Shown here: positions 5,123 through 8,707 of the stretch, in pieces
Layout of the letters: each line of letters opens with the position of its first letter
How positions within the stretch are numbered: the first letter of the stretch is position 1
Assembly: GCF_000742135.1 (NCBI RefSeq)
Contig: NZ_KN046818.1
Coordinates: 2,276,600-2,340,599 of the forward strand
Reading direction: 5' to 3'
Source of the DNA: Klebsiella pneumoniae
GTDB lineage: Bacteria; Pseudomonadota; Gammaproteobacteria; Enterobacterales; Enterobacteriaceae
Length of the DNA: 64,000 nucleotides
Made by a program: the position numbers and the translations under genes
The notes under the pieces: generated by a model
What the model saw: only the letters and a program-made list of their open reading frames with translations
What the model was told of the DNA's origin: nothing
The model's database searches: none

Positions 5123-5221
5123 ATGGAAAAACGTCTTGAAACAGTGGTCAATGTGATTATGTTTCTTTCGCTATTGGCAACGGCCTGGGATCTCTCGCTG
5201 GTGCATCATCTCGCGTGGTAG
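5123..5221 (+). CDS. Small single-helix membrane protein, 32 residues
   Basis: The frame starts with ATG after AGGAGAAGCAACG, a strong ribosome site, and encodes MEKRLETVVN, then a hydrophobic core (VIMFLSLLATAW), then a histidine-containing tail ending in W. This is the pattern of short inner-membrane proteins of enterobacteria: charged N-terminus, one helix, short tail. It stands alone, 64 bp after the GNAT gene, and a perfect hairpin follows its stop. I do not recognise it by name. Its final TGG TAG coincides with the left boundary of the direct repeat that flanks the Hcp insert. Confidence 0.55.
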   Translation: MEKRLETVVNVIMFLSLLATAWDLSLVHHLAW

Positions 5222-5241
5222 TAAATTATATCATCTGAAAC

Positions 5242-5263
5242 GCGGCGCCTCTTGCGGCGCCGC
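5242..5263. terminator. Hairpin, left copy
   Basis: Perfect eight-pair stem GCGGCGCC/GGCGCCGC with loop TCTTGC, between the small ORF (plus) and the tautomerase remnant (minus). It is convergent and probably bidirectional. No long T run is present. It is duplicated at 7067-7088. Confidence 0.6.
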
Positions 5264-5268
5264 CTGTC

Positions 5269-5456
5269 TCATTCATCCGCCATCTTCCCTGGGCTAAAAC
5301 TCCAGTCCTCCAGTTGGTTAAACTGGATAACCACCATCACGTCCTGCGGGCTGACCGCCATCTCATCGTCTAACCGTGCGCAGAGCCGACGATAGAGTCC
5401 TTGTTTCTGCGCCCGGCTGCGCGGTTTTCCAGCGAAAATATGAAACAATACGAAGT
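5269..5456 (-). pseudogene. Tautomerase 3' remnant
   Basis: This minus-strand stretch keeps the reading frame for the last 60 or so residues of the tautomerase encoded intact at 7094-7474, ending in GKMADE. It has no start or N-terminal half, and so lacks the catalytic proline. Several differences from the intact copy are synonymous or conservative. One change in the C-terminus replaces alanine by proline (SFSPGK against SFSAGK). It is best read as the stump left where the Hcp insert entered. Confidence 0.8.
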
Positions 5457-5627
5457 AATAGCTAACCGAGATATTTTAAACCGGGCAGGGTGCGAGGGAA
5501 TATAAACAAAAGAGTAGAGTCAATATTACTATCAAGGCCATCGTTTTATAAGTATATTGAAAGGCCAGATGATCATAAGAAATATGTGCCGGAACAATGA
5601 ATGATCTAATAAAGGAAGGATCTAATT

Positions 5628-6345
5628 ATGTATTATAGGAATTTCATCATTACCTCAATCGAGGCGGAGCGTATTCTGGCCATGAAATTTGATGAAGCAT
5701 TTGCTGGAGTAAAAAAGAATGTTATTGATACACTGAATCAAATGGGAAATGGTATAACCCGTGCTTCGTATTATACTTCCTGCTTAATGGATAATTATCA
5801 GGATGTTTGTTCTAAGTTAAAGCAAGAGGACACAAGATTTATTGCAGGGCTGGCGCAGTTAGTTAAAAGCCGTGATATCATTTTCCAAATGATTAAAATA
5901 TATATAGAAACCTACTTTCAAAATAAAAAAAGAAGAAAAAGCTCAATATATTCTCAAGAAGCTTGTCGGCGCGGGAGTTTACATATCATCTTCAGGATTA
6001 ACTAATCGTATTTTAATAATGGCAGTAGCAACCATGATTTGCCAGACTTCCAGGTTTAATACTGTTGTATATGGGCGTATCAACAGGGCAAGGTCATTAG
6101 TCCTTAAAGGGAGTGTAACTGCTACCGCAGTGGTATTAAACGTGTATGGATTGATTCAGGATGCCGCTAATAGCGCTGACAATTTGAAAATGCATAATTC
6201 ATTTTATTACAATGCGTTATACGCTAACCATCTGGAGATGATGTACTTTCTCATCGAACCTGTCATCGCAGGCGTTCCTTATTTAAATCCGATGATTATT
6301 TCTGATGATGAACTTGCTGAATTACTTATTCAATTAATGAGGTGA
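5628..6345 (+). pseudogene. Putative type VI secretion effector, split by a frameshift
   Basis: Two adjacent frames, 5628-6005 (125 residues, start preceded by AAAGGAAGGATC) and 6019-6345 (108 residues, no ribosome site), join into one 238-residue protein if a single A is removed from the A7 run at 5925-5931. After that change the frame reads ...FQNKKEEKAQYILKKLVG and continues through the otherwise start-less second part. The joined product is helical with two or three amphipathic or hydrophobic stretches near GAGVYISSSGLTNRILIMA, SVTATAVVLNVYGLI and MYFLIEPVIAGVP. That is compatible with a small membrane-inserting toxin such as the Hcp-dependent Ssp6 family, but I cannot confirm homology. 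It is followed by a two-helix protein and hcp. It is strongly AT-rich against its surroundings. It could be a decayed gene, a slippage-expressed gene or a base-call error. Confidence 0.55.
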
Positions 6346-6349
6346 ATGG

Positions 6350-6544
6350 ATGGATTTCTTGAAAAGATGGTTAAAAGAAGAATTCATTCTTTTTTTATGG
6401 GGATGGGGTATTGTATTATTAATCATTATATTTAGCATGATTGCAGTCTCTCTTTTTCCTGACATTGCCATTAACTTAATAGGACTTTTTGTTTTATTAA
6501 TCATTGGGTTTCACGTTGTCGTTTGGTTTAAAGTTAAAAACTGA
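6350..6544 (+). CDS. Two-helix membrane protein, candidate immunity protein
   Basis: A 64-residue protein beginning MDFLKRWLKEE, with two hydrophobic segments (about residues 12-33, FILFLWGWGIVLLIIIFSM, and 38-60, IAINLIGLFVLLIIGF) and a lysine-rich tail. It starts five bases after the upstream frame stops, with GAGG at short spacing, so it is translationally coupled to the putative effector. Position between a suspected membrane-active effector and hcp, plus its inner-membrane character, fit an immunity protein. No family is recognised, so this is inference from context. AT-rich like the rest of the insert. Confidence 0.5.
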   Translation: MDFLKRWLKEEFILFLWGWGIVLLIIIFSMIAVSLFPDIAINLIGLFVLLIIGFHVVVWFKVKN

Positions 6545-6562
6545 TATGAAAGAGGAGGGGTA

Positions 6563-7045
6563 ATGTCAAATCCAGCATATTTATGGTTAACTGATGAGAA
6601 TGATTCGCCTATTATAGGTTCTTGCCTGATGCCCACACGCACGGGTTCCATCGAATTGCGCGCAGTGAATCATCATGTTTGGTTACCTACCGATAATAAT
6701 ACAGGAAAGCTGACGGGAACCCGTCTTCATACACCGGTTAAAATTCAAAAAGAGTTTGACAGAACAACACCTTTGCTATTTAGGGCTCTTTGTGAAGGTC
6801 GAACATTAAGATCGGCAACGCTAAAAATGTACAGAATAAATGAGGCGGGACTGGAGGTTGAATATTTTAACATAGCGATGGCGAATATTAAGATTACGAC
6901 AATCACACCAAATTTACATCCGGCCGGAATGACAAGTACTCACCTTGAAGACATTGATTTCCGTTATGAGACGATCACCTGGATATACACAGAAGGGAAC
7001 ATCATGTATCGTGATTCATGGAACGATCGCTGTTGTGCATGGTAG
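6563..7045 (+). CDS. hcp: Hcp family type VI secretion tube/effector-carrier protein
   Basis: A 160-residue Hcp1-family protein. The characteristic N-terminus (YLWLTDENDSPIIGSCLMPT), the segment NTGKLTGTRLHTPVKIQKEF and the end FRYETITWIYTEGNIMYRDSW are all typical, and the length matches the family. Hcp hexamers form the secreted inner tube and bind small effectors in their lumen. AAAGAGGAGGGG gives a strong ribosome site. No other type VI structural gene is in the window, so this is an orphan hcp that probably serves a secretion system elsewhere and carries the product of the neighbouring effector gene. The C-terminus departs somewhat from usual (NDRCCAW). Confidence 0.9.
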   Translation: MSNPAYLWLTDENDSPIIGSCLMPTRTGSIELRAVNHHVWLPTDNNTGKLTGTRLHTPVKIQKEFDRTTPLLFRALCEGRTLRSATLKMYRINEAGLEVEYFNIAMANIKITTITPNLHPAGMTSTHLEDIDFRYETITWIYTEGNIMYRDSWNDRCCAW

Positions 7046-7281
7046 CAAATGATATAGTGCTGAAACGCGGCGCCTCTTGCGGCGCCGCCTGTCTCATTCA
7101 TCCGCCATCTTCCCTGCGCTAAAACTCCAGTCCTCCAGTTGGTTAAACTGGATAACCACCATCACGTCCTGCGGGCTGACCGCCATCTCGTCGTCTAACC
7201 GCGCGCAGAGCCGACGATAGAGTCCCTCTTTCTGCGCCCGGCTGCGCGGTTTTCCGGCGAAAATATGAAACAGCACGAAGC
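7041..7281. repeat. Right copy of imperfect direct repeat flanking the Hcp insert
   Basis: Matches 5217-5456. It starts at the hcp stop (TGGTAG), includes the hairpin, and runs into the 3' end of the intact tautomerase gene. The differences between copies mean that the duplication is old or that the incoming DNA came from a divergent strain. Confidence 0.85.
7067..7088. terminator. Hairpin between hcp and the tautomerase gene
   Basis: Perfect eight-pair stem GCGGCGCC/GGCGCCGC, loop TCTTGC, placed between convergent genes. Identical to the hairpin at 5242-5263. Confidence 0.65.
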
Positions 7282-7474
7282 GGGCGCTGCGTCCTTCGCT
7301 GAGGTAGTGCGGGTCGTAAATGCGCTGCTCATCGGCGGCCCGTTCGATAAACTGAAATCTATCTGCTGACGGAACGTCGAACTCCGCCACCAGACACTCA
7401 TGAAAGAGCGCCGACAATTGAGCAAACTCCGCGGGACGCCAGGCGGTGCCAAGCGAAATTCGGGTCAGGGGCAT
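7094..7474 (-). CDS. Tautomerase family protein
   Basis: A 126-residue protein of the tautomerase (4-oxalocrotonate tautomerase/MIF) superfamily. The start at 7474 gives MPLTRISLG, with proline directly after methionine, the catalytic base position of the superfamily. Longer frames upstream merely read through the neighbouring gene. Residues HIFAGKPRSRAQKEGLYRRL and the end VMVVIQFNQLEDWSFS fit the C-terminal half of such proteins. It overlaps the upstream carboxymuconolactone-decarboxylase gene by 10 bp, so they form an operon. Its 3' end is duplicated on the far side of the Hcp insert. The substrate is unknown. Confidence 0.85.
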   Translation of the reverse strand: MPLTRISLGTAWRPAEFAQLSALFHECLVAEFDVPSADRFQFIERAADEQRIYDPHYLSEGRSARFVLFHIFAGKPRSRAQKEGLYRRLCARLDDEMAVSPQDVMVVIQFNQLEDWSFSAGKMADE

Positions 7475-7785
7475 GACGCCTCCTGCGCGTTCAGGCAGGT
7501 CAGGGCGCTGGCCGCCGCCGGCCAACCGGCATAGAACGCCAGATGGGTAAACAATTCGACAATTTCTTCCCGGCTCAGGCCATTCTGATAGCCGAGCGCG
7601 ATGTGCCACGGCAGCTGTTCAGTTTTGCCCTGCGCCGTCAGGGCGGAAAGGGTGATCAGGCTGCGTTCGCGGGGCGACAGCTCGCTCCGCGCCCAGATAT
7701 CGCCAAACAGCACCGTTTCGGTCAGCTCGGCTAGCTTTGGCGCGATAGCAGCCAGCGTTCGGCGATCGACAGGAGGAGTACTCAT
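7465..7785 (-). CDS. Carboxymuconolactone decarboxylase family protein
   Basis: A 106-residue AhpD-like/CMD-family protein. Conserved parts are ELSPRERSLITLSALTAQGK (about residues 35-54) and LPWHIALGYQNGLSREEIVEL, including the family histidine. No CxxC redox pair is visible, so it resembles true CMD or uncharacterised homologues rather than AhpD. It is the first gene of a two-gene operon with the tautomerase, suggesting joint handling of a small unsaturated keto acid or lactone. An unusual overlapping set of inverted repeats lies in its promoter. Confidence 0.85.
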   Translation of the reverse strand: MSTPPVDRRTLAAIAPKLAELTETVLFGDIWARSELSPRERSLITLSALTAQGKTEQLPWHIALGYQNGLSREEIVELFTHLAFYAGWPAAASALTCLNAQEASCP

Positions 7786-7945: not shown

Positions 7946-8707
7946 TCAGGCGGCGATCTTTCGCGCCACGATAAACAGCCGTGGGAAACGCAGGAGCACC
8001 TTCCCGTTACACTGTAACGGATAGTGTGCGGCCAGCAATGCGAAATAGCGTGTGAGAAACGCGCTTCCGGCCTGCTCGTCCAGGCCTGCCAGATAGGGGC
8101 GTAACCCGGTGCCCTGCAGCCAGTCGACAATCGCCTGATGAGAAGCAAGGGGATGAAAATAGGTGGTGCGCCAGATATCAACTTCGCAACCCTGGCGGCT
8201 GAGCAGATCGTACCAGGCGGCGGGCGGGAGTAACGGCTGGCGTCCACGGTCCGGCAACCCCATCTCGCTGGCAACCTGACGCATCAGGGTATGGGAAGGT
8301 TCCTGCCAGTTATCCGGCATCTGCACTGCCAGCGTTCCGTTGTCCGCCAGCTGGTTTACCAGATGGGGGAAAAGCGTCTCATGATCCGTCAGCCACTGCA
8401 GAGAGGCGTTGGCATAGATCACATCTGGCGGTTGCGCAGGCCGCCAGCGGGCAATATCGGCATCAATGAATTCGCAGTCGGGTAAGGCCTGCGCCGCCTG
8501 GACCAGCATGGCCGGGGAGTTATCGATACCGACGATCGTCGCCAACGGCCAGGCGGCGCGTAGCAGGCGGGTGCTGTTTCCCGGCCCGCAGCCGAGGTCG
8601 ACGGCGTGCTCGACCTGCAGATGGGCAATACGCGAGAGCAGGTCGGCCGCGGGGCGGGTACGTTCAGCGTCAAATTGCAGATACAACGAAGGATTCCAGT
8701 CGGCCAT
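7946..8707 (-). CDS. tam: Trans-aconitate 2-methyltransferase
   Basis: A 253-residue SAM-dependent methyltransferase matching E. coli Tam (252 residues), which methylates trans-aconitate, a spontaneous by-product that inhibits the citric acid cycle. SAM motif I is [14 protein letters not shown] (about residues 36-49), followed by GIDNSPAML (motif II) and YANASLQWL. The start chosen at 8707 (MADWNPSLY) fits the family; an upstream methionine would add 14 unusual residues. In E. coli tam also neighbours uxaB, so this is backbone. The promoter gap to the right holds a 13-bp palindrome found twice more in the window. Confidence 0.92.

What the first reader, a model, noticed from the sequence alone, without database searches (positions are those of the whole stretch)
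5217..7281. AT-rich Hcp/effector/immunity insert between copies of a tautomerase gene end
The insert holds, in order, a split small protein with membrane-active character, a 64-residue two-helix protein coupled to it, and an Hcp. The reading as an Hcp-carried effector with its immunity protein follows from known Hcp biology (small effectors ride in the Hcp lumen; Ssp6-type effectors are small pore formers with inner-membrane immunity proteins). No type VI structural genes are near, so it would be an auxiliary cassette. The effector and immunity families are not recognised and may be new.
Basis: partly seen in the sequence, partly recalled or inferred. Interest (0 to 1): 0.7.

Follow-up and report, generated by a model that had tools for sequence, protein, structure and literature searches.

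The report
Ssp6-family effector cassette with orphan hcp
A small foreign DNA block in a Klebsiella genome carries a known kind of bacterial weapon cassette: a membrane-attacking protein (its gene is broken here), a tiny self-protection protein and a spare injection-tube protein that probably carries the weapon into rival bacteria.

Summary
A 1.6-kb AT-rich block (36.9% GC; window 58.2%) lies between two ~243-bp copies of a tautomerase gene's 3' end; three congeners keep the site empty with one copy. It encodes a frameshifted helical protein (intact 238-aa copies exist), a 64-aa protein with two hydrophobic segments, and a true Hcp. The families are not new: by remote but significant profile similarity plus gene anatomy the large protein belongs with the Ssp6 pore-forming T6SS effectors, and Mariano et al. 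2019 reported Ssp6-like genes beside 'orphan' hcp genes in some K. pneumoniae strains. Effector, small membrane protein and hcp stand in that order in 62 of 79 genome loci. Best reading: an auxiliary cassette served by the main T6SS about 240 kb away, its Hcp carrying the pore-former and the small protein giving immunity. Here the effector is broken while immunity and Hcp stay open. Function is inferred, not tested. More novel, in passing: relatives of the pair sit between portal and replication genes of P2-like prophages (13 of 43 viral-contig loci), and two genomic triplets lie between remnants of those genes, so prophages may spread this weapon.

The parts
5213..5455 (.). left copy of the duplicated tautomerase 3' end (direct repeat); truncated gene end, minus-strand ORF 5269-5448
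5456..7036 (.). AT-rich insert, unique part (1581 bp, 36.9% GC)
   Evidence: absent from L103, L104, L105
5628..6005 (+). first half of the Ssp6-family effector gene (125-aa ORF; its last 24 residues are out of frame)
   Evidence: profile hit G000:C1:2282227-2282550
6019..6345 (+). second half of the same effector gene (108-aa ORF); frame lost in an A-rich stretch upstream of it
   Evidence: intact copies
6350..6544 (+). 64-aa protein with two hydrophobic segments, predicted immunity protein
6563..7045 (+). Hcp/TssD tube protein, 160 aa, 52% identical to the Hcp of the main T6SS cluster
7037..7280 (.). right copy of the direct repeat; the hcp stop codon lies just inside it
7094..7474 (-). whole tautomerase-family gene (Tautomerase_2); the ORF tool's longer frame runs 7094-7609
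   Evidence: annotated 'tautomerase family protein', 381 bp, in CP125156.1

Best explanation
An auxiliary, horizontally gained T6SS cassette. The orphan Hcp joins tubes built by the main T6SS and carries the Ssp6-family helical protein in its lumen. After injection the effector inserts into the rival's membrane, forms ion-conducting pores and depolarises it. The 64-aa two-helix membrane protein protects the producer and its sisters. In this strain the effector gene is frameshifted, so the locus most likely acts as an immunity-plus-Hcp remnant, unless slippage or an assembly error hides an intact gene. Shown here: gene identity, order, conservation, empty site, signs of purifying selection. Inferred from the Ssp6 literature: delivery in Hcp, pore formation, immunity.
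For: Hcp identity (4e-47 to solved chain 4hkh, 'putative type VI secretion protein'). Order effector - small ORF - hcp on one strand: 61 of 79 genome loci by script, 62 with L028, where the script took the other copy; in a few the hcp frame is short or split. A small ORF with at least two hydrophobic segments directly downstream: 74 of 79. Profile-profile match of this family (A1) to a Serratia family (A3): probability 96.8, E 3e-10 over 129 columns. That family's L131 locus has a 67-aa two-segment ORF overlapping the effector gene by 4 nt, the published anatomy of ssp6-sip6 (204 bp, 4-nt overlap, two TMH). Mariano et al. report Ssp6-like genes with orphan hcp in some K. pneumoniae. A main T6SS lies in the same genome (TssC; TssL, TssH, VgrG, TssA, TssF, TssG, Hcp and, below its curated cut-off, TssM). 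dN/dS between the CP125156.1 and G013 copies: effector 0.11, immunity 0.05, hcp 0.36, the last two on 6 and 14 differences. The model is all-helical.
Against: The similarity to the Serratia family is remote: 16% identity over 129 columns, residues 1-65 and 215-238 not aligned. L131 is taken as Ssp6-like by anatomy, not by name. The small protein has no BLASTP similarity to the L131 partner. 17 of 79 relatives have no hcp downstream on the same strand. Hcp and effector relationships do not match exactly: the best outside neighbour is the same for only 4 of 16 rows from genomes with several relatives, although overall r is 0.92 (54 pairs, confounded by host relatedness). Structure searches gave nothing usable.
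Confidence: 0.82

Rival explanations
1. The pair is at root a phage-borne membrane module (superinfection exclusion or abortive infection: a depolarising protein held by a membrane partner) that some bacteria later joined to an hcp and turned into a T6SS weapon. The insert would then owe its origin to phage cargo.
For: Relatives lie between portal and gpA-like genes in 13 of 43 viral-contig loci, all 13 with the small two-segment ORF and none with hcp. All 21 A1 members match phrog_26461. The prophage-type family aligns over its full length, E 8.5e-71.
Against: No PADLOC model matches any of 5 proteins tested. The hcp-linked form dominates among the closest genomic relatives (62 of 79). tblastn of P0001 finds nothing in 50,697 phage records. 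No phage-like neighbour was found around the Klebsiella insert.
Confidence: 0.12
2. In this lineage the locus is a decaying relic: the effector is broken and the rest is kept only as an immunity gene plus hcp, or has no use at all. This is compatible with the main reading for the family.
For: The window copy is frameshifted. Other broken Klebsiella-like forms exist: P0018 (132 aa), P0017 (internal deletion), and P0002, which leaves the family sequence after residue 193 and reads into the antisense of tam (window 8223-8276), implying loss of immunity gene and hcp.
Against: Intact in 2 of 2 other K. pneumoniae records and in G013; dN/dS of the intact copies is 0.05-0.36. The frameshift could be an assembly error.
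Confidence: 0.4
3. The small proteins are Hcp chaperones or regulators rather than effector and immunity protein.
For: Tight linkage to hcp in 62 of 79 loci.
Against: 17 of 79 genome loci and 33 viral-contig loci that show the small ORF, 32 of them without hcp. Remote homology to the Ssp6-like Serratia family.
Confidence: 0.04

Closest known systems
Ssp6/Sip6 of Serratia marcescens and the Ssp6 effector family (Mariano et al. 2019, PMC6889166)
   Same: Effector gene followed directly by a tiny ORF for a two-TMH protein; found in Enterobacteriaceae; the paper names orphan-hcp contexts in some K. pneumoniae strains; remote profile homology to a Serratia pair with the ssp6-sip6 anatomy.
   Different: Ssp6 itself is not linked to T6SS genes; this cassette carries its own hcp. 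The immunity-type proteins show no BLASTP similarity. The effector is broken here. There is a 4-bp gap between the genes, not a 4-nt overlap.
Ssp4 family of T6SS pore-formers (PMC12669606)
   Same: Helical, Hcp-dependent pore-forming effector with a membrane immunity protein (passages).
   Different: Presented as a distinct family; not compared here by sequence, because no Ssp4 sequence was fetched.
Orphan tssD/hcp loci of Klebsiella (PMC12469244)
   Same: Survey reports most tssD genes outside the main loci (11,544 of 14,160), with putative effectors near them (passages).
   Different: The main text has no occurrence of Ssp6, and this locus is not described in the passages read.

Membership tests
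Hcp/TssD | Match to curated Hcp models over full length | tested here: met
   TIGR03344 127.9 bits, cut-off 58.9, residues 1-155; PF05638 92.2 bits, cut-off 23.5; solved chain 4hkh 4e-47
Ssp6 effector family | Sequence homology to Ssp6 | tested here: inconclusive
Ssp6 effector family | Small ORF with two TMH immediately downstream | tested here: met
   64 aa, two hydrophobic segments by a simple hydropathy scan, 4-bp gap; 74 of 79 relatives alike
Ssp6 effector family | Restricted to Enterobacterales | tested here: inconclusive
   78 of 79 genome-locus titles bear names that I recall as Enterobacterales; one (L020) is titled Martelella alba, an alphaproteobacterium by taxonomy, but carries rpoD and mug in the same surroundings as L015, so the title may be wrong; not resolved
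Ssp6 effector family | Immunity protein similar to Sip6 | tested here: inconclusive
   No BLASTP alignment at E<=100 to the 67-aa L131 partner, but Sip6 itself was not at hand, and the paper says only some family immunity proteins are recognisably similar, so this is not a required feature
Ssp6 effector family | T6SS-dependent secretion and cation-selective pores | not testable with these tools
   needs experiment
Ssp6-like gene with orphan hcp in K. pneumoniae (2019 report) | Same locus as in Fig. 6 or Supplementary Fig. 9 of that paper | not testable with these tools
   Figures are not held and supplements were not open; only passages, section 11 and legends were read
Anti-phage defence system | Match to PADLOC models | tested here: not met
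   0 of 5 proteins at E<=0.1

The most novel reading that the evidence does not exclude
Ssp6-family effector-immunity pairs are prophage cargo. P2-like phages carry them at the site between portal and gpA, and some phages carry them with their own hcp. They thus hand a ready T6SS warhead with its private tube protein to new hosts. When the prophage decays, the triplet stays behind, so cassettes like this one could be the end product of phage delivery.
Probability: 0.4. Interest if true: 0.6.

Novelty: already known. Interest (0 to 1): 0.33.

Why it matters
It identifies what looked like unknown families as Ssp6-type T6SS weapons with a likely dedicated carrier. It gives a clean empty-site and duplicated-site pair for studying how such cassettes come and go in Klebsiella, with the effector broken in several ways while immunity can remain. 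The prophage relatives make it testable whether phages spread T6SS effectors together with the tube protein that carries them.

Tried and rejected

Considered and rejected: that the two upstream proteins are phage structural proteins (the PHROG family has no structural function, and the genomic majority is hcp-linked); that the duplication is a transposon target-site duplication (243 bp is too long by general knowledge; none of the insert's genes looks like a transposase). I have no proven mechanism for the duplication. Integration of a circle sharing the 243 bp, or recombination with DNA carrying it, fits. Both copies share species-specific changes in their middle part, which suggests gene conversion.

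Full report
What is there. Between a GNAT acetyltransferase gene and a tautomerase gene lies a block whose unique part (5456-7036) is 36.9% GC in a window of 58.2%; the lowest stretch of that length in the window lies here. It is bounded by two direct copies of the tautomerase gene's 3' end, 230 of 244 positions identical. Three unnamed congeners (L103, L104, L105) match both sides with one copy and no insert. A fourth (L102, from G013) has the same cassette. So this is a gained cassette and the duplication came with it. Two alignment columns near the outer edge separate left from right copies in all three genomes with the cassette (window, CP125156.1, G013), while the middle of the repeat is alike within each species. 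The insertion, or a later transfer of the whole locus, is therefore older than the strain. Synonymous divergence of the cassette genes between CP125156.1 and G013 is 0.06-0.18, against 0.22-0.79 for four neighbouring genes, which hints at later exchange of the cassette between species.

Genes. 5628-6005 and 6019-6345 are halves of one gene: intact 238-aa copies lie at the same site in CP125156.1 (annotated hypothetical protein) and NZ_CP079635.1, 2 of 2 other K. pneumoniae records seen (labelled plasmids, but 5.4 and 1.0 Mb long), and in G013. The frame is lost in an A-rich stretch near the middle of the gene. Whether this is real cannot be told here. 6350-6544 encodes 64 residues with two hydrophobic segments (20-36, 43-59), 4 bp after the effector stop codon. 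6563-7045 is a true Hcp, 52% identical to the Hcp of the main T6SS cluster of the same genome. That cluster, ending about 240 kb upstream, has TssC, TssL, TssH, VgrG, TssA, TssF, TssG, Hcp and a TssM below its curated cut-off. No TssC or VgrG lies in the window; other T6SS genes were not searched for there.

Relatives. A database search with the intact copy gave 77 proteins, none with a functional name in the listing. Among 60 genomes from the window's genus, family and order 14 had a match. Plasmids hold relatives too (22 records, 20 of them under 60% identity). A scan of genome contigs gave 119 relatives, of which the best 80 (79 loci) were kept, so counts lean to close relatives. In 61 of 79 by script, 62 with L028, an hcp follows on the same strand, short or split in a few, 160-283 bp after the effector gene in 55 of the 61, with a small ORF in between. 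In 74 of 79 the small ORF has at least two hydrophobic segments. In 17 of 79 no hcp follows (two of these have one on the other strand). Effector and Hcp divergence correlate (54 pairs, r 0.92, 0 of 2000 permutations as high), but host relatedness is not removed. In 16 rows from genomes with several relatives, the nearest outside relative was the same for both genes in only 4. So the Hcp travels with the effector over short times, with exchange.

Which family. Mariano et al. 2019 (PMC6889166; passages and section 11) describe Ssp6, a cation-selective pore-former delivered by T6SS, its immunity protein Sip6 (204-bp ORF, 4-nt overlap, two TMH, found in the outer-membrane fraction), and 95 homologues in Enterobacteriaceae. 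[quoted passage not shown] The profile of the present family finds relatives in 12 of 30 genomes of the genus of L077 (Serratia plymuthica by title). One, at L131, is 215 aa with a 67-aa two-segment ORF overlapping by 4 nt, exactly that anatomy. Profile-profile comparison gives probability 96.8 and E 3e-10. The link to Ssp6 by name was not tested, as its sequence was not at hand. A literature search with 'Ssp6-like' + Klebsiella + T6SS + effector found only that paper. A 2025 Klebsiella T6SS survey (PMC12469244, abstract, outline and passages) notes orphan tssD genes with nearby putative effectors; its main text does not name Ssp6.

Mechanism. Best supported: Hcp-lumen delivery of a helical pore-former, with the small membrane protein as immunity. 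The gene anatomy, order, conservation and selection (dN/dS 0.11, 0.05, 0.36 for effector, immunity, hcp, the last two on few differences) are shown; delivery, pore formation and immunity are inferred from Ssp6. The model of P0001 (21-row alignment, mean pLDDT 76.9, pTM 0.70) is all-helical and matches no solved fold usefully.

State in this strain. The effector is broken; immunity and Hcp are open. Other Klebsiella-like database forms are also broken: P0018 stops at 132 aa, P0017 lacks an inner stretch, and P0002 leaves the family sequence after residue 193 and runs into the antisense of tam (window 8223-8276), which implies a ~2-kb deletion that also removed immunity gene and hcp. Such losses fit a weapon under arms-race turnover, but frequencies in the species were not measured.

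Phage link (aside). 43 viral-contig loci encode relatives. In 13 of 43 the gene lies between a P2-type portal gene and a P2-type gpA gene. Of the other 30, 5 show portal or terminase only, 2 gpA only, 3 another terminase or portal type, and 20 none of these (10 of them with a repressor-like gene); many are short. PHROGs calls the L152 genes 'portal protein', 'terminase large subunit' and 'nicking at origin of replication'; the name P2 is recalled. A 13-row alignment of viral-contig relatives matches this family over full length (E 8.5e-71). 33 of 43 have a small two-segment ORF downstream, 8 end at the gene, 2 are neither; 1 of 43 (L141) has an hcp. Two genome loci with the full triplet, L015 and L018, lie between truncated remnants of those same two phage genes, and L020 has a portal remnant on one side. 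In a wider comparison with the viral contigs' genes 20 of 81 loci had some hit, but these three were the ones with portal or gpA; the window and CP125156.1 had none. L141, a 55.8-kb viral contig, carries the full triplet near a PmgS-like gene. Searches for this in print (listings only) showed no paper on it, which is weak evidence of novelty.

Verdict. A real, well-read observation, but a known kind of cassette. The interest lies in the broken effector with retained immunity and in the prophage connection.

Noticed in passing
L144, L149, L151, L152, L156, L158-L160, L162-L164, L169, L176 (viral contigs): Ssp6-like gene plus a small two-segment ORF between P2-type portal and gpA genes, without hcp: 13 of 43 viral-contig loci.
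   Followed up: partly
L015:7166-10020, L018:6501-10278, L020:7953-10272: Effector-immunity-hcp triplets lie between (L015, L018) or beside (L020) truncated P2-type portal/gpA remnants; L015 and L020 have rpoD and mug nearby.
   Followed up: partly
L020: Record titled Martelella alba (an alphaproteobacterium) whose locus has the same rpoD/mug surroundings as an Enterobacterales MAG (L015); the record title may be wrong.
   Followed up: partly
L141:5995-7381: A 55.8-kb viral contig carries the whole effector-immunity-hcp triplet near a PmgS-like gene, perhaps a P1-like phage-plasmid (that name is recalled).
   Followed up: partly
window 5123-5221: A 32-codon ORF with a hydrophobic stretch ends where the left repeat begins; its last codons (AW, stop) are like the end of the hcp gene at the right repeat, a possible junction of the insertion (read).
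   Followed up: no
G000:C1:2835853-2837322: A second vgrG far from the main T6SS cluster in the window's genome.
   Followed up: no
G000:C1:2352210-2352275: A short weak match (E 4.4e-4, one stop inside) to the effector profile outside the window, perhaps a fragment or chance.
   Followed up: no
L176:2110-2754 and 5974-6510: Two diverged Ssp6-like genes on one prophage-like contig, each with a small ORF downstream.
   Followed up: no
database protein P0002: An effector form running into the antisense of tam, implying a deletion that removes immunity gene and hcp; 349 member sequences listed.
   Followed up: partly
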